Shown: piece by piece, positions 4,870-64,000 of the stretch
Numbering within the stretch: position 1 is the stretch's first letter
Layout: each line of letters begins with the position of its first letter
Source of the DNA: Armatimonadota bacterium
GTDB taxonomy: Bacteria > Armatimonadota > Zipacnadia > UBA1398 > JAKPQA01
Direction of reading: 5' to 3'
Assembly: GCA_029547025.1 (NCBI GenBank)
Contig: JAKPQA010000279.1
Coordinates: 1 to 64,000 of the forward strand
Length of the DNA stretch: 64,000 nucleotides
Translations under genes and position numbers: made by a program
The notes under the pieces: generated by a model
What the model was told of the DNA's origin: nothing
The model's input: the letters and a program-made list of their open reading frames with translations, nothing else
The model's database searches: none

Positions 4870-6072
4870 CTACCGCGCTAGAGGGTACCCGAGGTCCCGA
4901 GCCAGGGCAAGGTGCTCTTTCGCCTCCGCGGCGCGGCCCTGCGCCTCCAGGATGCGGCTCAGCTGGTAATGGCACCGCGCCCTGACCGAGGGCGCGGCCA
5001 CACGCTCCACGGCCCGCCGCAGCGTCTCCATGGCCGCGTCGGTGTCGCCACACTTCCACTGAGCCCACCCGAGCGCCGCCAGGTCGCCGTCGGCCGCGTC
5101 GGGTGCTTCGGCCGCCGCTTTGGCCTCCCTGAGAGCCACGTCAAAGCGCTGCCCCAGAGCCAGCAGCGCCTCGGCCCGCGCTCGATGGGCCCAGGCCGGG
5201 GCGTCCGCCGCCAGCTTCTCCAGGTAGCGAGCGGCTTCGCTTGGGCGGTTGGCCTTCACCAATGCCTCACCGATGGCAGCGTCGGCCATGGGACGGCCCT
5301 CCGTGCGCATGCGAAACTGCTCGAGATATTGCTGGGCTGCCTCGGCGTCGCCCGCCCCGCCGCGCATCAGGTACCGTCGCATGATCACCAGCAGCGGACG
5401 AGACTGCTCCACAGCGTCGTTGCTCTCTCCCTGCGCCAGCTGTTCCAGTGCGGCGTTGGCCATGGCCATCGCCTCGTCGAACATCCGGGCTCCCAGGGCT
5501 GCCTCGGCGGCGGCCATGGCGATCTCTGGGCCCCCTCCTCCCAGGTCGAGAGCCACGCGGAGCTGCTCGTACGCTGCTTTGTGCCGCTCGAGCTTCAGCT
5601 GGAGCAGGCCGAGGGCTTCGTGTCCCCTGGGATCATCTGGCGCATCCAGCACGGCGGCCTCCGCCGCCTGCACCGCCTTCGCGTACCGCCCTGCGGCGTC
5701 CAGCGCCTGGGCGGCCAACAGGTGGAAATCCAGCCCCTCCGCCCCGGCTTCGGCAGCGGCCTCAAGGTCGTCCGCCGCGCCCGTCACGTCCTCGCGCTCG
5801 AACCGTGCCTGCCCGCGCAGTCGCAGAGCTTCGGCGTGGCGGCCGTTGGCCTCGATCACTGGCGTGACCAGCGTCTCCACCGAGGCCCAGTCGCCCCGCG
5901 TCGCCGCCTCGCGCGCGGCGTCCACGGCGTGCGCCATCGCCTCGGCCGAAAGCGCGGGCGGGGGGATCGGCCTCGCCGGCCGCGAGCGCCCACATCCCGG
6001 TGCGGCAATGCCCACCAGCGCTGCCACAGCCCAGACGGCCCAGCGGGATGGGCCGCATCTCTCGCAGACCAT
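4870..6072 (-). CDS. TPR-repeat protein, exported or lipid-anchored
   Basis: 400 residues. The N-terminus has a hydrophobic segment (WAVWAVAALVGIAAPGC) ending at a Cys; the lipobox is imperfect, so a lipoprotein is possible rather than certain. From about residue 45 onward the protein is made of Ala-rich helix pairs with TPR spacing (for example GRHAEALRLRGQARFEREDV and DDPRGHEALGLLQLKLERH). TPR arrays mediate protein-protein contacts. The ATG has an AAGGAGGAG site about 6 nt upstream. It is the first gene of a minus-strand run leading 43 bp on to the Tat-exported DUF362 gene, so it may scaffold that complex; this is inference. Confidence 0.8.
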   Translation of the reverse strand: MVCERCGPSRWAVWAVAALVGIAAPGCGRSRPARPIPPPALSAEAMAHAVDAAREAATRGDWASVETLVTPVIEANGRHAEALRLRGQARFEREDVTGAADDLEAAAEAGAEGLDFHLLAAQALDAAGRYAKAVQAAEAAVLDAPDDPRGHEALGLLQLKLERHKAAYEQLRVALDLGGGGPEIAMAAAEAALGARMFDEAMAMANAALEQLAQGESNDAVEQSRPLLVIMRRYLMRGGAGDAEAAQQYLEQFRMRTEGRPMADAAIGEALVKANRPSEAARYLEKLAADAPAWAHRARAEALLALGQRFDVALREAKAAAEAPDAADGDLAALGWAQWKCGDTDAAMETLRRAVERVAAPSVRARCHYQLSRILEAQGRAAEAKEHLALARDLGYPLAR

Positions 6073-6228
6073 GCCCGACTCCTCCTTCCAGCCGCGCCCC
6101 AGCGTCGCTCGGGGCCGAACCTGGCCGGGTCAGTATTCGAAGGACCGCCGATGGTCCCTGGTTCGCCCAGGCGCGCCGGAGGTATCGGCCAGCCGGCAGG
6201 GAAGCATCGTTGACGGAGGTGAGTGCCC

Positions 6229-7215
6229 ATGGACCGGCGGCTGCGTGCGGCGGTGATCGGTGCCTCAGGGATCGGCCGTTATCATGCCAAGTGGTTGGTG
6301 CATGAGGGTGCCGATCTCGTGGCGATCGTTGGCTCGTCGTCCTCCTCGACCCAGGTCACCGCCGCCCGTCTGAGCACGACGCTTGGCTTCACCGGACGCG
6401 CCTACGCCGCGGTCGATGACATGCTAGCCCGTGAACGACCCGACGTCGTGAGCATTGCGTCGCCGCCACATCTGCACGCCGACCACGCCCTCCGATGCCT
6501 GGAGGCCGGTGCCCACGTGTTGTGCGAGAAGCCCTTCGTCTGGGCCCCGGGGGTCGCATTCGCGGACCTGGAGGCGAGGGCCCGGGCCGTGCTCGCCGCA
6601 GCCGACCGTGCCGACCGGGTCTTCTGCCTCATGACCCAATACGTCTCGCTGGTCCCGAGTCTCCAGGAGATCGCCCGGCTATGCAGTGGGCCCGACACGG
6701 GCGTCTGGCAGTTCGGAATGCGTTTTGAGTCAATGCTCCGCGATGGCGCCGTGGTGAACGGTGACGACGTCTGGGTCGACCTCGGGCCCCACCCGCTGGC
6801 AGTAGCGGCGGCGCTGTTGCCCGGCTGGCATCTGGCCCCGGGGTCGCTGACTGTTGCCGCTGCCGGTCTGGAGACCCGCGTCACCTTTGACATGTCTCCG
6901 CCCCCCGCGCGGCCCAACCAGCCCCTCTGCGCCGTCGAGTTGCTGGTGTCCAAGGGCGAGGACCCCCAGCGCTGGTTCGAGGTCAATGGAATGCGCATCC
7001 ACTATGAGGGCCGCAACGACGAGTCGGGCGAGTTCCACGTCTGCTTGCGAGTGGGGGACACGAGCGCCGGCCACGAGGACCCGATGCGCCTGACGGTGCG
7101 CTCGTTCTTGGCCAAGTGCTCGGGGTTGCCTCACGGCCCTCTTCTCGGTGGCTCCGAGGGGCTCGAGACCCTCCGGGTCCTGTTCACAGTGCTGCGCGAA
7201 CGCCAGCCCCGATAG
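6229..7215 (+). CDS. Gfo/Idh/MocA family oxidoreductase
   Basis: 328 residues. An N-terminal Rossmann fold binds NAD(P), with the dinucleotide loop VIGASGIGRYHA near residue 8 and the family signature HVLCEKPFVW near 100 carrying the Lys of the EKP motif. The second half is the alpha/beta substrate domain. Such enzymes oxidise or reduce sugars and cyclitols; substrate is not predictable here. The ATG at 6229 is preferred over the in-frame GTG at 6223 because GGAGG at 6215-6219 gives a 9-nt spacing to the ATG. The 3' end overlaps the convergent dgkA/PAP2 gene by about 32 bp. Confidence 0.88.
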   Translation: MDRRLRAAVIGASGIGRYHAKWLVHEGADLVAIVGSSSSSTQVTAARLSTTLGFTGRAYAAVDDMLARERPDVVSIASPPHLHADHALRCLEAGAHVLCEKPFVWAPGVAFADLEARARAVLAAADRADRVFCLMTQYVSLVPSLQEIARLCSGPDTGVWQFGMRFESMLRDGAVVNGDDVWVDLGPHPLAVAAALLPGWHLAPGSLTVAAAGLETRVTFDMSPPPARPNQPLCAVELLVSKGEDPQRWFEVNGMRIHYEGRNDESGEFHVCLRVGDTSAGHEDPMRLTVRSFLAKCSGLPHGPLLGGSEGLETLRVLFTVLRERQPR

Positions 7216-56030: not shown

Positions 56031-57107
56031 GTGCAGACACTGTGCCCACAGTGTGGCAGGATCAACACAGTCACGGGCCCCTCGGCCACGTGTCATTGGT
56101 GCTATGCTGCGCTGCCCCATGCGCAGAATGTCGCAGATCCCCGCCGCGCCGTCGTGGCGCGTCCGCCACAGGAGTGGCCACTGCCCCACGAATGCCGTCG
56201 ATGCGGGGGTCCGCTTCCTCCGCGGGCCTTCGACTGTCCCCGGTGCGGCTTCTCCATGCTCGTCGACTTGCCTGCGGCGTCGAGGCCCAGCAAGCGAGGT
56301 CCGTGGACGTGGTTGGGCGCCCTCGTGGTGCTTGGGGTTCTGGCTGCTCCCGTCGCCATTGTGCTGCGGCCGCGTTCGGAGAGCCAGGCCAGTCCCATTC
56401 CACAGGGGCAGTGGCACAGCCCGGCCGCAGCCGACTTGGGTTTCGGGTCGAACACGGCGCGGCCGCTGGTGCCGACGCCGGCCGACGTGACTACCGGGCG
56501 CGACAGCCCCTTCCCGGCGCCCCTCCCGTCCACGTCGATTCCCGCCACGGCGCAGGCCTATGCATCCCCGGCCGTTCTGAAGTTCCTGGGCGCCAACAGC
56601 CAGGTCGACTGGGCGGCCGAGTTGGCCTCATGGATCTGCGAGCCACCCGAATCCCTCATCGTCCTGCCCCGGGAGTCGCCGGACGGCGCTCCGCTGGAGC
56701 TCGCGGACCTGGGGACACTTCGATCACTCGCCTACCCCGATGAGCGTGCGGTCAGTGGCGGGTCGGGCACGCGTGGCCACGGCGGCAGCGAGGCGAGCTA
56801 CCATGCTCACGCACACACGATCTACGTCCACAAACCGAGTGATGTGGTGACCGCGTTCTATCAGCGCCTCCTGGGTGACAACACCCGCCAGACCGCCTGG
56901 GTGACCGAGCGGTTCATCCCCGTGTGCCAGCTCGTGCGCATTGCCGACCGCGAGGCCGTGGTGGTCACCGTGTGCCCGGGCTCGGCATTTGCCTCCGCTG
57001 AGCCTCTTGCCGCCATCCGCCTTTGCCGCGTCGAGCGTCGGCCGGGTGCCGCCGGCGAGTACGGGGAGAACACCGGCAAGGGGCAGCCCCGTGAGGTGGG
57101 GCGTTGA
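56031..57107 (+). CDS. Zinc-ribbon protein with one transmembrane segment
   Basis: 358 residues. Two zinc-ribbon blocks: LCPQCGRINTVTGPSATCHW (about 4-23) and ECRRCGGPLPPRAFDCPRCG (about 54-73). A single transmembrane helix (WTWLGALVVLGVLAAPVAIV, about 92-112) leads to a low-complexity Pro/Thr/Ser linker and a C-terminal region that may be extracytoplasmic (TIYVHKPSDVVTAFYQRLLG). Function unknown; zinc ribbons on the cytoplasmic side suggest sensing or scaffolding. GTG start, 60 bp after nrdR. The CPBP gene follows within 8 bp. Confidence 0.75.
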   Translation: MQTLCPQCGRINTVTGPSATCHWCYAALPHAQNVADPRRAVVARPPQEWPLPHECRRCGGPLPPRAFDCPRCGFSMLVDLPAASRPSKRGPWTWLGALVVLGVLAAPVAIVLRPRSESQASPIPQGQWHSPAAADLGFGSNTARPLVPTPADVTTGRDSPFPAPLPSTSIPATAQAYASPAVLKFLGANSQVDWAAELASWICEPPESLIVLPRESPDGAPLELADLGTLRSLAYPDERAVSGGSGTRGHGGSEASYHAHAHTIYVHKPSDVVTAFYQRLLGDNTRQTAWVTERFIPVCQLVRIADREAVVVTVCPGSAFASAEPLAAIRLCRVERRPGAAGEYGENTGKGQPREVGR

Positions 57108-57114
57108 CCATCCG

Positions 57115-58080
57115 ATGACGCCCGAGTTCGAGTCCGGTGCAACACCGGTATCTGACCACCCGACCGCCGACGCACTGCCGGGCCCTGAGACCCCATGGGG
57201 CAGCGCCGCCAAGCCGCCATGTGGGAATTGGATCCATGCCGTCGTGCTGCTGGGCGGCACTGCGGGCTTGGCTTACATCTACCGGCGGTTCTTCATGGGC
57301 CTCCCCGTCGCGGCTGGTGTCGCGTTCGACATCGCCAGTGCCGCCCTGTTGGTCCTGTACTGCGCCCAGGCACTCGACATTCCACTGCGTAGCCCCGAGA
57401 TCGAGGCGCTCCAGGTCATGCTGGTGGCCGTCATCTCGGGTCGCTACCTGGGTCAACTCGTCCACGTCACGAGCATCGGCTCGCAGGTCTTGTGGCTCCG
57501 CCCCACAGGCCCGCGCGATGTCTTGATCCTCAACTGGTTGACCGGCGCATCCGCCTTCCTTGTCCTCATCCCGTTCGCGGTCATCCTCCTCATCCGGAGG
57601 CGCCGGCTCTCCGACTACGGCCTCTGCTGGGGCGACTGGCGGCGCTGGGGCCCCTGGGTCTGCGGGGGCGTGGCCATCATGATTCCGATTCTGTGGTTCG
57701 CCACGGGCGCTTTCAGGGAACTACAGACTTTCTACCCTATGGTCAGGGGCGCGCGGGCGAGCCTCGGTGCCTTCGTCGTGTTCCAGTGCTTTGTCGTCCT
57801 GCTGATGTTCGGCTGGGAGTTCTCGCTACGCGGGTACCTGCAGTTTGCGCTCCAGGCGCGGCTGGGGCTCATGGCCGTAGTAGTTCAGAACGTCCCATTC
57901 GTCCTCGGCCATGTGAGGAAGCCCGAGTCTGAGCTCTACGGCACCCTCGTCTCGGGCCTCTTCCTCGGTTACATCGCCTACCGCGGCCGATCCATGCTTC
58001 CCGCCCTCATCACCCACGTCGCTGTGGCGGTCATCAACGACGCGATGGTGATCGCCCACCTCGGGGGATTCAGGCACTAA
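57115..58080 (+). CDS. CPBP/Rce1-type membrane protein
   Basis: 321 residues with about eight membrane helices. CPBP region: WEFSLRGY (234-241), FVLGH (262-266) and H301 in ITHVAVAVIND. The first motif is normally EExxxR; here the first Glu is Trp, while F262/H266, H301 and N308 are kept. The first Glu is essential in Rce1-type peptidases, so this protein may be non-proteolytic. The ATG at 57115 is 7 bp after the previous stop; an in-frame GTG at 57091 is an alternative. It converges on the CDF gene. Confidence 0.8.
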   Translation: MTPEFESGATPVSDHPTADALPGPETPWGSAAKPPCGNWIHAVVLLGGTAGLAYIYRRFFMGLPVAAGVAFDIASAALLVLYCAQALDIPLRSPEIEALQVMLVAVISGRYLGQLVHVTSIGSQVLWLRPTGPRDVLILNWLTGASAFLVLIPFAVILLIRRRRLSDYGLCWGDWRRWGPWVCGGVAIMIPILWFATGAFRELQTFYPMVRGARASLGAFVVFQCFVVLLMFGWEFSLRGYLQFALQARLGLMAVVVQNVPFVLGHVRKPESELYGTLVSGLFLGYIAYRGRSMLPALITHVAVAVINDAMVIAHLGGFRH

Positions 58081-58092
58081 GCGGGCCGGTTC

Positions 58093-59181
58093 TCAGGGCC
58101 GCCGCGCCCGTGGGCACTCGTCGTCCGTCGCCGCGTCGCACTCCCGCACGCAGAATGGTGGCTCGTCTCCGGTGGCGAGGGGGGCCCATCCCGGCTCGGG
58201 CCCCTCAATGTGGATCATGGCCGTCGCACCGGGAACCTGGGCATGGATGTCATCCTCGATGTGCGAAGCCAAGTCGTGCGCGAGGGAGACGTGCATGTCG
58301 GGACAGACGACCAGGTGCAGGTCCACGTGGATCTCCGCTCCCGCGCGGCGAGTGCGTAGTTTGTGAGCCTCCACAAACTGCCCGCTGTGGGTGTGGACAA
58401 TGTTGGCAATCAGACTCTCGATCTGGGGGTCCACCGGGCTGTCGAGGAGCTGCCTCACCGCCTTGCGGGTCAGCGAGTAGGCCGCGTGCAGGATCACGCC
58501 CGCCACGACCAGCGCCGCGATGGGGTCCAGCAGTTTCTGGCCTGTGATGCCCACCAGCGCCAGGCCAACCAGCACGCCCAGCGATGTGTAGACATCGGTA
58601 CGCAGGTGCCATCCATCCGCCTCCAGCGCGATCGACTGGTGCCGTTTCGCGACCCGCAACAGATGAGCCGAGACCAGTGCGTTCATCGTGGCCGAGACCG
58701 CCATCACAGCCAGGCCAGCGCCCACCGACTCGATCTCGCCCCCGCCGCGGAGGCGCCTAACTGCGCTCCAGACGATGCCCGCCGCGGCCATCGCGATGAG
58801 CCCGGCCTCGATCGCGCCAGAGAGGCTCTCGAACTTGCCATGACCGTAGGGGTGGTCGAGGTCGGGCGGTTTGCTGGCCTGGCGCACGGCACCCAGGGCG
58901 ATGGCGGCGGCGAGCAGGTCGTTGCCTGAGTGCAACGCTTCCGCCACAACACTCACCGAGCCCGTGACCCAGCCCACCACCAGCTTGGCGACGACCAGCA
59001 CGATGTTCGAGGCCACCGAAAGCCGTGCCGCACCCACGGTCTGGCGCGACCGCAGCAGCGATGGGTCCCCGGCGTGCGAGTTGGCTCCAGCCTCAGCCAC
59101 GCGGGCCTCCTCCAGACGCGCGCCGACGGCTCTGGCCACCTCTAGATCCCGCCCCGGCAGCCATCTACGGCGACCCGCCAT
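58093..59181 (-). CDS. Cation diffusion facilitator (CDF) transporter
   Basis: 362 residues. Six membrane helices with LHSGNDLLAAA (about 83), HPYGHGKFESLSGA (about 110) and ADGWHLRTDVYTSLG (about 195), the metal-binding motifs of the family, then a cytoplasmic C-terminal domain (AEIHVDLHLVV). It exports divalent metals such as Zn, Fe, Mn or Co by proton antiport. The ATG at 59181 overlaps the 3' end of alr by about 17 bp, suggesting coupling. Confidence 0.9.
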   Translation of the reverse strand: MAGRRRWLPGRDLEVARAVGARLEEARVAEAGANSHAGDPSLLRSRQTVGAARLSVASNIVLVVAKLVVGWVTGSVSVVAEALHSGNDLLAAAIALGAVRQASKPPDLDHPYGHGKFESLSGAIEAGLIAMAAAGIVWSAVRRLRGGGEIESVGAGLAVMAVSATMNALVSAHLLRVAKRHQSIALEADGWHLRTDVYTSLGVLVGLALVGITGQKLLDPIAALVVAGVILHAAYSLTRKAVRQLLDSPVDPQIESLIANIVHTHSGQFVEAHKLRTRRAGAEIHVDLHLVVCPDMHVSLAHDLASHIEDDIHAQVPGATAMIHIEGPEPGWAPLATGDEPPFCVRECDAATDDECPRARRP

Positions 59182-60301
59182 CGAGGGAAGCGCCCCGGTA
59201 CACACGTGGGAGCCGCTGGCTCAGCCCCGTGACAAACTCGTGGGGTATGGTCCCGAGCCGCTTCGCCAGTGCGCAGACTGACATCTCGGGCTCCGGTCCG
59301 CCGGCAACGAGCACTTCGTCGCCGATCACCACGTCCGGCACTCCTGTGACGTCCACCATGAATTGGTCCATGCAGACGCGGCCCACCACAGGGACCACGC
59401 GCCTTCTGACAACCACCATACCACTGTTGGAGAAACGCCGGTCGTAGCCGTCGGCGTACCCGAGGGGCACTGTGGCAATCCGGCTCGGACCCGCAGCCTC
59501 ATGGGTCAGGCCGTATGAAACTCCGTCACCCCTATCGACATCCGTGAGTGCAACGATCCTCGCCTTCACTGACAGCGCCGGGCGGTAGTGGATCCCGAAC
59601 ACGTTGTGGCCCGGGCACGGGTCCATCCCGTACAGCGCCAGGCCTGGCCGAACCCCCCCCAGGTGCATCTCCCCGAAACGAGCGATGCCCGCGCTCGCCG
59701 CCAGGTGGACCATCGGCACGTCCACTCCCACGGACCGAAGCTCCCGCACGGCAGCCATGAGCCGCCGGTGCTGCTCCCGGGCGAATGAGTCGTCCGACTC
59801 GTCCGCCGTGGCCAAGTGGGACCACACAGCGCCCAGCACCAGGTGGGAGTCATCGCGTACCGCCTGACCCAGGGCCGACACGGCCGACGGCGAAACCCCG
59901 ATCCGGTTCATGCCTGTGTTCACCTTTAGATGGACGGCCGCGCTCTTGCCCTGCGCCTCACACGCGGAGGAGAGCGCCTTCAGTCCGTCCTCACTGCACA
60001 GGGAGGCCGTGATTCCATGGGTGACGTAGTCCGACGCCTGATCGGGCACCATCGCCCCCATCACCAGAATCGGCGCCGCAACCCCGCTCTCTCGGAGCTC
60101 CAGGGCCTCCTCCAACAACGCGACGCACAGCGAGTCCGCGCCGCACGCCACGAAGTGCTGGGCGACTCGCACCAGACCGTGACCATACGCATTGGCTTTG
60201 ACCACGGCCATGAGCTCGCACTCAAGCCCAACGACCTGGCGGATGGACTGAAGATTCGCACGAAGGGCGTCGAGGTCGACTTCGACCCAGGCCGGACGCA
60301 T
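59165..60301 (-). CDS. alr: Alanine racemase
   Basis: 378 residues. The PLP lysine is in MAVVKANAYGHG (K35), and the opposing catalytic Tyr in DGVSYGLTHE. VHLKVNTGMNRIG and VPLGYADGYDRRFS complete the fold-type III barrel and C-terminal domain. It makes D-alanine for peptidoglycan. It is divergent from the chorismate-synthase-like gene, with a well-formed promoter at 60337-60366 and a shared inverted repeat. Confidence 0.96.
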   Translation of the reverse strand: MRPAWVEVDLDALRANLQSIRQVVGLECELMAVVKANAYGHGLVRVAQHFVACGADSLCVALLEEALELRESGVAAPILVMGAMVPDQASDYVTHGITASLCSEDGLKALSSACEAQGKSAAVHLKVNTGMNRIGVSPSAVSALGQAVRDDSHLVLGAVWSHLATADESDDSFAREQHRRLMAAVRELRSVGVDVPMVHLAASAGIARFGEMHLGGVRPGLALYGMDPCPGHNVFGIHYRPALSVKARIVALTDVDRGDGVSYGLTHEAAGPSRIATVPLGYADGYDRRFSNSGMVVVRRRVVPVVGRVCMDQFMVDVTGVPDVVIGDEVLVAGGPEPEMSVCALAKRLGTIPHEFVTGLSQRLPRVYRGASLDGGSP

Positions 60302-60336
60302 GGCGGCTCTCCGAGGACGGGAAGGGTAACCCGGCC

Positions 60337-60366
60337 ATCATAGGGCTACCCCACACGGAGCGTCAA
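60337..60366 (-). promoter_or_regulatory. alr promoter
   Basis: On the minus strand, TTGACG (60366-60361), 18-bp spacer, TATGAT (60342-60337), 36 bp upstream of the alr start. Confidence 0.75.
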
Positions 60367-60388
60367 CTCGAGCTGCTGTCAGCTCGAG
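60367..60388. repeat. Operator-like inverted repeat between divergent promoters
   Basis: CTCGAGCTG-CTGT-CAGCTCGAG is a perfect 9-bp inverted repeat. It touches the alr -35 element on one side and lies 5 bp from the plus-strand -35-like TTGGTG on the other, so one regulator could serve both genes. Confidence 0.6.
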
Positions 60389-60392
60389 CTGC

Positions 60393-60422
60393 TTGGTGCA
60401 TCGCCCTCTGCCATGATAGACT
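60393..60422 (+). promoter_or_regulatory. Weak promoter of the aroC-like gene
   Basis: TTGGTG (60393-60398), 18-bp spacer, TAGACT (60417-60422), 32 bp upstream of ATG 60455. Poor match; suggestion only. Confidence 0.4.
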
Positions 60423-60454
60423 TGCCACCTACTCAGCCATGAGGGGGAGCGAAC

Positions 60455-61786
60455 ATGGTCGGATGCCACCTCGGAAGGTTGCTGCAGGTCACGGTGGCCG
60501 GGGGATCCTATCAGGAAGGACTGACATCGGTCATCCAGGGGATCCCACCGGGCCTCCTAGTGACCGAACAGGCGATCTACGGCGACCTGCTTCTGCGGAA
60601 GCCAGGGGCCGACGAGTTGTCCTCCCCGCGCAAGGAGCCGGATCTGCCTATCATCTACACAGGGCTCAACGCCGCCGACACCGTCGAGGGCGCCGGCAAC
60701 TGCAACCGCACCAACGGCACGCCGATCACCATCCTGATCCCGAACCTCGACCGCCACTTCATCCATGTGAAGCAGTATCAGGACACCAATCGCACCCCAC
60801 GGCCCGGCCATGCTTCCTATGCTTCGTTCATCAAGTACGGGCCAGCAGACGATGCCATTGGTGCCGGCATCTTCAGCGGCCGATACACCTGCACCATCGT
60901 TGCCGCCGGCTCCATCGCCAAGCAGGTCCTCGCCGAGTGCGGTGTCCAGGTCTATGCCTTCGTTCGGGAGGCCGCCGGAGTACGGTGCCCCGACCTCGGC
61001 CACGATCTGGAGCTCGACCGGACCCGCCGATACCGGCAGATGCGGCGTGATCTGGATCCCTTCTACCAGCACGTCTATGTCAGTGGGCGCATCACCCCTG
61101 AGATGAGGTTTCTCGAGAAGACCCGCGTGTTTGCCGAGATCGAGCAGCAGATTGACGCCATCCGCGATGGGGCTCCCGCCATGGACCCGGCCGAGGTTCG
61201 CGACCGCTATGGTGTTCATCCGGTGATCAACTGCCCGGATCTCGATGCCGCCCAGGCTATGGTCGAGGCCTGCAACCGCGTCTCGGCCAGCGGCGATTCA
61301 TCGGGCGGCCTCGTCGAGGTGGTCGTCCTGGGCGCGCCGGTGGGTCTGGGTGAGCCCGTCTTCGCCAAGCTGGATGCCGAGCTTGGACGGATGCTCGGCA
61401 TCGGGGCTGTCAAAGGCGTCGAGGTGGGCGCCGGATTCGCCGTCAGGAACATGGTCGGCAGCCAGACGAACGACCAGATGCGCTCCGATGGCCGAACGGT
61501 GCTCTTCGACTCCAATCAGGCTGGCGGGATCACGGGGGGCCTAAGCACAGGACAGCCCATCATCGTGCGCCTGGCCGTCAAGCCAACACCCACAATTGCT
61601 AAGGCGCAACATACGATTGACAAGTACACTCTCGAAAATCGCGAGCTGGCGGCCATCACCCGGCGCGACCCCACCATCGTCGCGCGCGTCTGGCCGGTCG
61701 CCGAGGCGTTCACCGCCCTCGTGATCCTGGACAATCTGATGGCCTATTACGGATATGAGGAGCTGAAGAGAAGGACTGGCAGTTAA
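60455..61786 (+). CDS. Divergent chorismate synthase homologue
   Basis: 443 residues. Chorismate synthase fold features are clear: GIPPGL (29-34), TNGTPITILIPNLD (86-99), TPRPGHASY (114-122), GIFSGRYT (138-145), AGSIAKQVLA (151-160), GLGEPVFAKLDAELGRMLGI, SNQAGGITGGLSTGQPI and AVKPTPTIAKAQ. But the near-invariant GESHG is GGSYQ (16-20), GGGHFSGR is GAGIFSGR, and RHDPC is RRDPT. The catalytic His of GESHG is therefore Tyr19, while the His of RPGHAS (H119) is kept. It may have lost or changed its activity. RBS GAGGGGGAG lies before the ATG. It is divergent from alr. Confidence 0.8.
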   Translation: MVGCHLGRLLQVTVAGGSYQEGLTSVIQGIPPGLLVTEQAIYGDLLLRKPGADELSSPRKEPDLPIIYTGLNAADTVEGAGNCNRTNGTPITILIPNLDRHFIHVKQYQDTNRTPRPGHASYASFIKYGPADDAIGAGIFSGRYTCTIVAAGSIAKQVLAECGVQVYAFVREAAGVRCPDLGHDLELDRTRRYRQMRRDLDPFYQHVYVSGRITPEMRFLEKTRVFAEIEQQIDAIRDGAPAMDPAEVRDRYGVHPVINCPDLDAAQAMVEACNRVSASGDSSGGLVEVVVLGAPVGLGEPVFAKLDAELGRMLGIGAVKGVEVGAGFAVRNMVGSQTNDQMRSDGRTVLFDSNQAGGITGGLSTGQPIIVRLAVKPTPTIAKAQHTIDKYTLENRELAAITRRDPTIVARVWPVAEAFTALVILDNLMAYYGYEELKRRTGS

Positions 61787-61898
61787 CCTTCGGCTAACCG
61801 ACTATCAGCTTGCCATATCATGTGCTGGGTGGATCCGTGGGGCCATCCCCCGCCTGGCCGGCGCGGGCTGCGCGCGGAACGATCGCTGTGGCACTGCC

Positions 61899-64000
61899 TC
61901 ACCTCGGCTCAAACAACATGAACTCCCAAAGGGTCGGCCCGCCCGGGCCATCGGTGATGAGGAGGCGGACGCGCTGGGCGGTGACGGGCTCGAACTCAAT
62001 GTCCAGATTCGTGCCGATGGGGCCGCCCCGTGCGAAGGTCACCCAATCGCCCCCTCGCTCCATTTGGAGTTCGAAAGCACGCACTCGGCCGTATGCCTCC
62101 GAGAGATAGGCCCGGCCGATGCGTTCGGGGCGGCCGAGGTCCACCGCCAACCACGCCTGCGAAACCGTGTCGTCCGTTGCCCAGCGCGTGCCCGCATCAC
62201 CGTCGGACGCCATCTCGGGCCCGTAGACTGACATGCCGCGGTAGACGTTCGACGCGGTCGTGGGCTTGCCCAGGTTGAGTGCGCTCCCGGCGTCCTCGGG
62301 CAGGTCCGGAATGTCCTCGACCGGCAGGTCAGGGCCGAGTGGCGGATGCCCGACCCGGTCACGCAGCCATCGCCGCAGAACCGCCAGCTTGTGAGGCGGG
62401 ACGAGCTCGTCCCACAGGCGTAGTGGCTGGACCTCGGGTACCGCGGTGGGCGTGCTCAGACGCAGGGTCACGATCTGCTGCGGGCGCAGCGGGAACTCAT
62501 AGACCGGCCCACCACGCAGGGGACGCCGGTTGCCTCCTACGAGGTCGGTGAGCCAGGCCCGCCGATGGGGGAGCCTGATCTCGACCTGCCCAGTGCCCGC
62601 AGCGCCGCGGCACTCGACCATCCGCAGCTCGATCTCACCGCCCTCGCGCCTCAACGCCTCGGTAACCAGGTTCGGCGAAGTCCGAACGAGCGAGGAACCG
62701 GGAAGCTCCCGGACGCCCGGGACACAGACCGGCGGCGCGTTGTACGCGTAGGCCGCCCTGGCTACGTCTGCCTGGCCGAAGGCATCGGAGTGTGCCAACA
62801 GGGCGAAAGCCGCTCGGTGCGTGCCTCGGCCGCTAAGCCAGTCGCACCGGTAGCCGAGATACTTGTCTTGCGCGCTCAGAAGGAACAGCGTCGGTGTGCT
62901 GCCCGTGAGCTCCCTACCAGGCAGGCCGCGGTCGAGGATCGCGACGCCGCCTCCTCCAGTGAGCTGGTAGTCCGACCAGCGGATGGCCGCCTGAATGCCG
63001 TCGGCGTAGCCAGGTAGAGCCGGGTTCGCCACCTGCCACGCGGCGTGCGAGAACCCGTAGGGGATGCCGCGCCGAACCTGTGAGATGCTGCCGGCCAGTG
63101 GGAACTCCGCCAGGACCACGGTGCCGCTGGGGACATCCGTGACCTCGACATCGAAGTCGATGCGAGGGGAATCGCGGTAGAACCGGATCGTCTGGCTCAC
63201 GGGCCTGCCCTCGATCAGGGTGCCCTCAGACCGGACGATAGTTGCCACGGGTCCTCTAACCGCGGTGACGCGCGCGGCCCCCCGAGCGGACTCGGCCAGC
63301 CGCTGCCGTCCGGACCGTGGAGGCGTGTCGTGGCCGTCGCCGCCGGTCTCGGCGACGATCTGCACGGGTCCTGCAAGAAGCTCTCGGCCGTGCGGTGCAA
63401 GCCTGAGACTGCACAGCGCGCCAGTCCGCGGGTCGACCCTGGCGCAGTAGTGACGCGTTATGATGGCTTCACTCGCATCCGCAGGCTCAGGTTCTGGCGG
63501 CGCGCCCGCTGTGATCCGTGGTGTCCACGTGCCCATGGCGGGCAAAGAGGCGGCGACCAGCGTCTGTCCGTCGGCATACTGCTGCGATGGCACCCCCGTC
63601 ACGTATGTTCCGGGCGAAAGTCGGAGGACGAACGGCTCGCTTCTCTCCCAACTCACCGGGTTGAACAGCCCGAGTCGGCTCCCGCGCCCGCCGAGGGCGT
63701 GCATGGCTGCCTGCTGGGTCCGAGTGCACGCTTCGTCAACCCAATCGAAGCGATCCTTCACATCCCACGAGCGCGGGTGGTCGAAAACCATCCCGCCCGC
63801 GGCGCCCCACAGCGTGTTCCGGTCCATGTTGAGGAGCATCTGCAACCAGGCGCAGTAGAGCGACTGAGCGGGGTAGGTGTACTCAGCGGTCGTGCTGGCC
63901 ACCGTTGCCAGCGCCTCGGTGGCAGCGAGGCTGTGCTCCGACGAGCGGTACCAGCCCTTCACCTTGGGGTTCTCGATCCAGAATGACGTCCAGGACAAAC
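61899..64000 (-). CDS. GH38 alpha-mannosidase with F5/8-type C-terminal domain, partial
   Basis: The 5' part lies beyond the window; at least 700 residues are here. GH38 features include LYCAWLQMLLNMDRN, LGLFNPVSWERSEPFVL and the beta-sandwich that follows (RVDPRTGALCSLRL). The catalytic nucleophile region is not in the window. The C-terminal 140 residues are an F5/8 type C (CBM32-like) module: LNLGKPTTASNVYRGMSVYG, then AWLAVDLGRPERIGRAYLSE. Signal status cannot be judged. Predicted to remove alpha-mannose from glycans, with the C-terminal module for carbohydrate binding. Confidence 0.85.
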   Translation of the reverse strand, partial: LSWTSFWIENPKVKGWYRSSEHSLAATEALATVASTTAEYTYPAQSLYCAWLQMLLNMDRNTLWGAAGGMVFDHPRSWDVKDRFDWVDEACTRTQQAAMHALGGRGSRLGLFNPVSWERSEPFVLRLSPGTYVTGVPSQQYADGQTLVAASLPAMGTWTPRITAGAPPEPEPADASEAIITRHYCARVDPRTGALCSLRLAPHGRELLAGPVQIVAETGGDGHDTPPRSGRQRLAESARGAARVTAVRGPVATIVRSEGTLIEGRPVSQTIRFYRDSPRIDFDVEVTDVPSGTVVLAEFPLAGSISQVRRGIPYGFSHAAWQVANPALPGYADGIQAAIRWSDYQLTGGGGVAILDRGLPGRELTGSTPTLFLLSAQDKYLGYRCDWLSGRGTHRAAFALLAHSDAFGQADVARAAYAYNAPPVCVPGVRELPGSSLVRTSPNLVTEALRREGGEIELRMVECRGAAGTGQVEIRLPHRRAWLTDLVGGNRRPLRGGPVYEFPLRPQQIVTLRLSTPTAVPEVQPLRLWDELVPPHKLAVLRRWLRDRVGHPPLGPDLPVEDIPDLPEDAGSALNLGKPTTASNVYRGMSVYGPEMASDGDAGTRWATDDTVSQAWLAVDLGRPERIGRAYLSEAYGRVRAFELQMERGGDWVTFARGGPIGTNLDIEFEPVTAQRVRLLITDGPGGPTLWEFMLFEPR

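What the first reader, a model, noticed from the sequence alone, without database searches (positions are those of the whole stretch)
60455..61786. Chorismate synthase homologue lacking the GESHG histidine
Overall similarity to chorismate synthase is strong across the full length, yet three conserved sites differ: GESHG is GGSYQ, GGGHFSGR is GAGIFSGR, and RHDPC is RRDPT. The His in GESHG is regarded as catalytic in this FMN enzyme. The fold and the FMN/phosphate segments are kept, so this may be a paralogue with another reaction or a regulatory role. No other shikimate gene is adjacent; the neighbour is alr.
Basis: partly seen in the sequence, partly recalled or inferred. Interest (0 to 1): 0.72.

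Follow-up and report, generated by a model that had tools for sequence, protein, structure and literature searches.

The report
Chorismate synthase with tyrosine replacing histidine
This gene encodes a second, divergent form of chorismate synthase, the last enzyme of the shikimate pathway, in which a supposedly invariant active-site histidine is a tyrosine; because many other bacteria appear to have only this form, that histidine is probably not indispensable in nature.

Summary
ORF 60455-61786 (+, 443 aa) is a full-length AroC homologue with GGSYQ for GESHG and RRDPT for RHDPC. The same genome has a second, canonical aroC beside a shikimate kinase-like gene.

The ORF belongs to a distinct subfamily (here AroC') found in MAGs recorded as Planctomycetes, Armatimonadetes, Spirochaetales, Omnitrophota and others. 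In 25 of 29 tallied AroC' genomes it is the only AroC found. In 14 it lies downstream of aroA (EPSP synthase). aroA, aroB and chorismate-using enzymes are mostly present too.

Two of the three changes are older than AroC'. Canonical-length AroCs with GESYG and RRDPT/RRDAT, also sole AroCs and mostly next to aroA, group with AroC' in one well-supported clade. His17 to Tyr and RHD to RRD thus trace to one branch. The five EPSP-contacting arginines and the His106, Ser16/Ser127 and Asp367 equivalents are kept.

Best explanation: a working chorismate synthase whose leaving phosphate is handled by Tyr19 plus an extra Arg404; here a lone second copy, probably horizontally acquired. Activity was not tested; a different substrate is not excluded. 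I found no description of it in the open papers searched.

The parts
60455..61786 (+). aroC' CDS, 443 aa, divergent chorismate synthase (GGSYQ type)
   Evidence: PF01264 310 bits over the full profile, TIGR00033 above cut-off; 69-76% identity to 19 loci of other MAGs
60441..60449 (+). likely Shine-Dalgarno (GAGGGGGAG), 5 bases before the ATG
   Evidence: sequence read directly
60500..60514 (+). GGSYQ motif (res. 16-20); Tyr19 at the position of His17 (N. crassa) / His10 (S. pneumoniae); Ser18 = Ser16 kept
   Evidence: alignments
60593..60601 (+). Leu47-Arg48-Lys49: first Arg of RRRPG lost, EPSP-binding Arg46 kept as Arg48
   Evidence: alignments; EPSP contact from PMC11633415
60668..60703 (+). 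short clade-specific insert (about res. 72-83)
   Evidence: alignment
60800..60811 (+). RPGH (res. 116-119): EPSP-binding Arg103 and FMN-N1 His106 equivalents kept
   Evidence: alignments
60860..60889 (+). GAGIFSGRYT (res. 136-145): Ser127 and Arg129 kept (Ser141, Arg143); Arg125 to Ile139, Glu130 to Tyr144
   Evidence: alignments
60995..61216 (+). clade-specific helical insert (about res. 181-254), no Pfam match
   Evidence: alignment, AlphaFold2 model mostly 85-95 pLDDT in this stretch, Pfam
61661..61675 (+). RRDPT (res. 403-407): Arg403 and base Asp405 kept, His to Arg404
   Evidence: alignments
59165..60301 (-). alr, divergently transcribed neighbour, not part of the pathway
   Evidence: TIGR00492 345 bits

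Best explanation
AroC' is a genuine, divergent, FMNH2-dependent chorismate synthase (EPSP to chorismate + Pi) in which Tyr replaces the histidine thought to protonate the departing phosphate. Shown here: the fold and sequence family; retention of the EPSP-binding arginines (Arg48, 116, 143, 403, 411), the FMN-N1 histidine (His119), the serines (Ser18, Ser141) and the base Asp405; sole-AroC status in most genomes carrying it; position downstream of aroA in 14; and a single-branch origin of Tyr19/RRD shared with canonical-length aroA-linked AroCs. Inferred: Tyr19, helped by the extra Arg404 beside the phosphate-binding Arg403, stabilises or protonates the leaving phosphate. In this genome the gene is a lone, probably horizontally acquired second isozyme beside the canonical aroK-aroC; its added value there is unknown.
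For: Sole AroC in 25 of 29 genomes carrying it: 15 and 10, against 4 with a canonical copy as well (G000, G067, G073, G078). These include a one-contig genome (G265, estimated 81% complete) and MAGs of 95-97% completeness. aroA upstream in 14 AroC' genomes (one of them, G072, with aroA cut at a contig end and about 0.9 kb away). aroA above cut-off in 16 of 19 genomes, with a 17th in two pieces; aroB above cut-off in 20 of 28; chorismate-binding enzymes in 27 of 28. Intermediate GESYG/RRD AroCs of ordinary length, one PF01264 gene per genome where tested, aroA present in 22 of 22 and directly upstream in at least 18. One Tyr clade with bootstrap/SH-aLRT 99/99 even when the motif columns are masked. 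EPSP-binding and catalytic residues kept. Foldseek: all 28 significant PDB hits are chorismate synthases. 69-76% identity across phyla argues for strong purifying selection.
Against: No assay. A long stem leads to the GGSYQ clade (1.13 changes per site), with further loss of otherwise invariant Glu15, Arg125, Glu130 and Arg134, as might follow a change of function. Four genomes keep a canonical AroC as well. Most genomes are MAGs, so absence of a canonical gene in any single one is weak. aroB was not found in 7 of the 28 genomes, and no full-length AroA in G074 and G076. The active-site loops of the model have low confidence.
Confidence: 0.8

Rival explanations
1. AroC' is a neofunctionalised paralogue that acts on another phosphorylated cyclohexene (an EPSP analogue) or serves regulation.
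For: Canonical AroC also present in G000, G067, G073 and G078; a long stem branch and loss of several invariant residues; in this window no shikimate gene is adjacent.
Against: Only AroC in 25 genomes that mostly retain aroA, aroB and chorismate-using enzymes; next to aroA in 14; EPSP-binding arginines and catalytic Asp/Ser/His106 kept.
Confidence: 0.12
2. AroC' is a bifunctional chorismate synthase: the clade-specific helical insert gives it its own FMN reduction or another oligomeric state, so it complements rather than copies the canonical enzyme.
For: A well-modelled helical insert of about 72 residues and smaller inserts present in the whole GGSYQ clade; bifunctional chorismate synthases with NAD(P)H:FMN reductase activity are known (PMC7144000, PMC2386126).
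Against: The insert matches no Pfam family, so nothing points to NAD(P)H binding; the bifunctional M. tuberculosis enzyme has that activity at ordinary length. It could also be true alongside the best explanation.
Confidence: 0.1
3. The window copy is a binning contaminant or a decaying pseudogene.
For: The genome is a MAG with 4.83% estimated contamination.
Against: Tetranucleotide correlation of the window with other contigs of the bin is 0.98-0.99 and GC is alike (resolution limited, as a member of family f38 also reaches 0.95-0.97). The ORF is intact with a Shine-Dalgarno and all clade-conserved motifs. A genome recorded as a chromosome of 6.5 Mb (CP070782.1 = G078) also carries both forms.
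Confidence: 0.04

Closest known systems
Canonical chorismate synthase AroC (EC 4.2.3.5; TIGR00033, PF01264; e.g. PDB 1qxo, 4lj2, 1r52)
   Same: Fold, full-length alignment, EPSP-binding arginines, His106/His110, Ser16/Ser127, Asp367/Asp339 equivalents, aroA linkage in relatives
   Different: His17/His10 is Tyr, RHD is RRD, GES is GGS, and Arg45, Arg125, Glu130, Arg134 are replaced; about 90 extra residues, mainly one helical insert
GESYG-type AroC of the same phylum and of one genome of the G078-phylum sample (L015, L017, L019-L021, L023, L025, L028, L098-L104, L126)
   Same: Tyr at the His17 position, RRD, loss of Arg45 in most, RPGHA(E/S), sole AroC, aroA upstream; one clade with AroC'
   Different: Ordinary length, no large insert; GES, Arg125, Glu130 and Arg134 kept
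Syntrophaceae-type AroC (L051-L054)
   Same: Another natural departure from the two 'invariant' histidines, with aroA close upstream
   Different: GESHG kept; it is the other histidine (His106, RPGHAD) that is changed, to Gln (RPGQGD)

Membership tests
Chorismate synthase (TIGR00033 / PF01264) | Profile score above curated cut-off over the full length | tested here: met
   PF01264 310 bits (cut-off 27), profile 1-327; TIGR00033 308 bits (cut-off 212)
Chorismate synthase (TIGR00033 / PF01264) | Chorismate synthase fold | tested here: met
   Foldseek: all 28 PDB matches with E <= 0.001 are chorismate synthases, TM (target) 0.66-0.85; model pTM 0.81, mean pLDDT 73, active-site loops low
Chorismate synthase (TIGR00033 / PF01264) | Active-site His of GESHG (His17 Nc / His10 Sp) | tested here: not met
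   Tyr19 in the window and in all clade members. The same Tyr occurs in GESYG AroCs that are the sole AroC next to aroA, so I doubt that this site defines the family; the filing as chorismate synthase stays an inference until assayed
Chorismate synthase (TIGR00033 / PF01264) | Second active-site His (His106 Nc / His110 Sp), Ser16, Ser127, Asp367 | tested here: met
   His119, Ser18, Ser141, Asp405
Chorismate synthase (TIGR00033 / PF01264) | EPSP-binding arginines (PbCS R46, R103, R129, R354, R362) | tested here: met
   Arg48, 116, 143, 403, 411; the last two assigned by their spacing of 8 around RHD
Chorismate synthase (TIGR00033 / PF01264) | Linkage to and completion of the shikimate pathway | tested here: met
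   In relatives: aroA adjacent and only AroC; not adjacent in the window itself
Chorismate synthase (TIGR00033 / PF01264) | EPSP to chorismate activity with reduced FMN | not testable with these tools
   needs enzyme assay or complementation
Bifunctional (NAD(P)H:FMN reductase) chorismate synthase | Intrinsic flavin reduction | not testable with these tools
   no sequence signature usable here

The most novel reading that the evidence does not exclude
In genomes that keep a canonical AroC (such as this one), AroC' has moved to another EPSP-like substrate, or has gained its own flavin-reducing function through the helical insert, so that the GGSYQ clade is a functionally distinct flavin-dependent lyase rather than an isozyme.
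Probability: 0.13. Interest if true: 0.75.

Novelty: new variant of a known kind. Interest (0 to 1): 0.5.

Why it matters
Chorismate synthase is described as having two invariant active-site histidines, one proposed to protonate the leaving phosphate. A natural clade, apparently the only chorismate synthase of whole families of bacteria, has Tyr there, paired with an extra Arg beside the phosphate site. That makes the debated fate of the leaving group directly testable with natural variants, and warns against calling such genes non-enzymes from one residue.

Tried and rejected
Regulatory RNA around the gene: no Rfam match at E <= 1 for 60200-61950. Function through a conserved neighbour other than aroA: other neighbours vary (CstA, PfkB, signal peptidase, DUF4914, aminotransferase, SAICAR synthetase). 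Insert as a known domain: no Pfam match. Native versus foreign contig by alr identity: low (mostly 36-45%) to all class members, uninformative. Original mutagenesis paper (Kitzing 2004): not held. Annotation of CP070782 was not available. Literature searches returned no paper on such a variant; only titles, abstracts and selected passages were looked at, and subscription journals are mostly not held.

Full report
Observation. The ORF at 60455-61786 (+) encodes an intact 443-aa protein starting at an ATG with a good Shine-Dalgarno sequence. It matches the chorismate synthase profile PF01264 over its whole length with 310 bits and passes the TIGR00033 cut-off. The neighbours are alr (minus strand, divergent) and, downstream, a glycosyl hydrolase family 38-like protein with an F5/8 domain on the minus strand. 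No shikimate gene is adjacent in this window. The protein is also about 90 residues longer than an ordinary AroC, chiefly through a helical insert at residues 181-254.

A canonical aroC exists in the same genome. G000 has a second PF01264 gene on contig C229 (471 bits) with GESHG, GSGRASGRET and RHDPC, directly downstream of a gene resembling shikimate kinases (below the curated cut-offs). In the tree it groups with AroCs that include those of the same order, G001 and G002. The window copy is therefore a paralogue in this genome. GC and tetranucleotide make-up of the window agree with other contigs of the bin (0.98-0.99), although a MAG cannot exclude binning error. A record titled as a chromosome (CP070782.1 = G078, 6.5 Mb) carries both forms as well.

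A clade of its own. A scan of GTDB genome contigs found 19 loci at 69-76% identity over nearly the full length, in MAGs titled Planctomycetes, Phycisphaerae, Brocadiia, Armatimonadetes, Spirochaetales, Omnitrophota, UBP15 and others. All carry GGSYQ and RRD(P/A)T, and the insert is present in all. In 291 genomes of the window's own phylum, AroC' occurs in G000, in family f10 (G027, G031), in genus g151 of f45, and in all seven sampled members of family f38 at 61-62% identity. A sample of 199 genomes of G078's phylum held nine with AroC', some as fragments. The patchy distribution across phyla suggests horizontal transfer (inference).

It is usually the only AroC. Of 18 genomes reached through the loci, 15 have only AroC' (one of these with two AroC' copies) and three have a canonical copy too (G067, G073, G078). 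In the window's phylum, ten further genomes have only AroC' and G000 alone has both (G027 and G031 appear to be the same genomes as G062 and G065, by identical sizes and coordinates, and are counted once). Taken together, 25 genomes have only AroC' and 4 have both. AroA passes its cut-off in 16 of 19 of the first set, with G072 having it in two pieces. AroB passes in 20 of 28. Chorismate-binding enzymes (PF00425) are found in 27 of 28. So the pathway is fed with EPSP and chorismate is consumed in genomes where AroC' is the only visible chorismate synthase. aroB was not found in seven of these genomes, which shows how far MAG incompleteness limits single absences.

It sits next to aroA. The ORF immediately upstream of AroC' is a bona fide EPSP synthase (TIGR01356 above cut-off) in L033, L034, L035, L037, L041, L049, L105, L106, L108, L109, L114 and L110. 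Two more, G031 (L036) and G072 (L043, where aroA is cut at a contig end and lies about 0.9 kb away), come. That makes 14 genomes. In the others, as in the window, the gene stands alone or beside variable neighbours.

The key intermediate. Many genomes of the phylum (families f4, f7, f15, f45 read directly; f44 by its match pattern), and one of the G078-phylum sample (L126), carry an AroC of ordinary length with GESYG, RPGHAE, GAGRASGRET and RRDPT/RRDAT. Those covered by the profile search have it as their single PF01264 gene. aroA passes its cut-off in 22 of 22 of these genomes tested. It lies within 500 bp directly upstream of the aroC match in 18 with both coordinates listed; G289 very likely belongs here too, but the start of its aroC match was estimated, so the '19' printed there includes an estimate. 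In a 74-row tree the GESYG and GGSYQ proteins together form one side of a branch with SH-aLRT 99-100. This holds with the motif columns masked (99/99; 100% of 200 bootstrap trees). All readable Tyr-type rows have RRD and none of the 29 His-type rows has it (with two RRDAQ rows and one GRHDK row read by eye). Because this is one branch, it is a correlated pair of changes and not independent evidence of covariation.

What the active site keeps and loses. A review states that His110 of S. pneumoniae (His106 of N. crassa) protonates FMN N1, that Asp367 primes N5 (300-600-fold loss when replaced), and that His106 to Ala costs about 20-fold (PMC3509576). His17 is proposed to protonate the leaving phosphate (PMC2386126, PMC7144000), with arginines named as possible alternatives (PMC12697075). 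In the P. brasiliensis enzyme, docking places EPSP against R46, R103 and R362, with R129 and R354 at the phosphate (PMC11633415). Mapping through yeast Aro2, whose numbering runs two lower than N. crassa's in the middle of the protein, gives Arg48, Arg116, Arg411, Arg143 and Arg403 in the window protein, all kept; R354 and R362 are assigned by their spacing of eight. Ser18, Ser141, His119 and Asp405 are kept. Changed in the whole Tyr clade: His17 to Tyr19, Arg45 replaced (not uniformly), Asp108 to Glu or Ser, RHD to RRD. Changed only in AroC': Glu15 to Gly, Arg125, Glu130 and Arg134.

Mechanism. I infer that Tyr19 lies where His17 donates a proton or hydrogen bond to the leaving phosphate, and that Arg404, next to phosphate-binding Arg403, adds charge so that phosphate can leave with less or no protonation. 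The remaining steps (reduced FMN, N1 protonation by His119, N5 chemistry primed by Asp405) would be as in the known enzyme. The predicted model supports the fold (pTM 0.81; all 28 significant PDB matches are chorismate synthases), but the active-site loops are of low confidence and no coordinates could be measured.

What remains open. The long stem to the GGSYQ clade and its additional losses mean a change of substrate or added function is not excluded, particularly where a canonical AroC coexists. No measurement of activity exists here. Among the open papers searched I found no account of Tyr-type chorismate synthases, but coverage of subscription journals is poor.

Noticed in passing
L051-L054, AroC ORFs at about 6001-7074: Syntrophaceae/deltaproteobacterial AroCs have RPGQGD where RPGHAD is expected: the other 'invariant' histidine (His106/His110) is Gln, with GESHG kept and aroA close upstream.
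   Followed up: partly
L015, L017, L019-L021, L023, L025, L028, L098-L104, L126: Canonical-length AroCs with GESYG and RRDPT/RRDAT, mostly next to aroA and the only AroC of their genomes.
   Followed up: yes
L114, L115 (G268) and L046, L050 (G075): Two AroC' copies in one bin; may be duplication, transfer or mixed strains.
   Followed up: no
L105:9223-11787 (-) and L108:4613-7336 (-): The aroA upstream of AroC' in two f38 genomes sits at the C-terminal end of an open frame of 855-908 aa; the N-terminal 440-490 residues match no Pfam family and may be a fusion or only an open frame.
   Followed up: partly
L105:6335-7858 (-), L106:10403-12106 (+): A CstA-type carbon starvation/pyruvate transporter lies directly downstream of aroC' in family f38, and an amino acid permease with a Usp domain upstream of aroA in L106 and L114.
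   Followed up: no
window 60367-60377 and 60383-60393: Two direct copies of CTCGAGCTGCT, 16 bases apart, in the alr/aroC' divergent intergenic region; possible operator or chance.
   Followed up: no
window 56941-58080 (+): ORF with a CAAX protease Rce1-like domain (PF02517) near its C-terminus.
   Followed up: no
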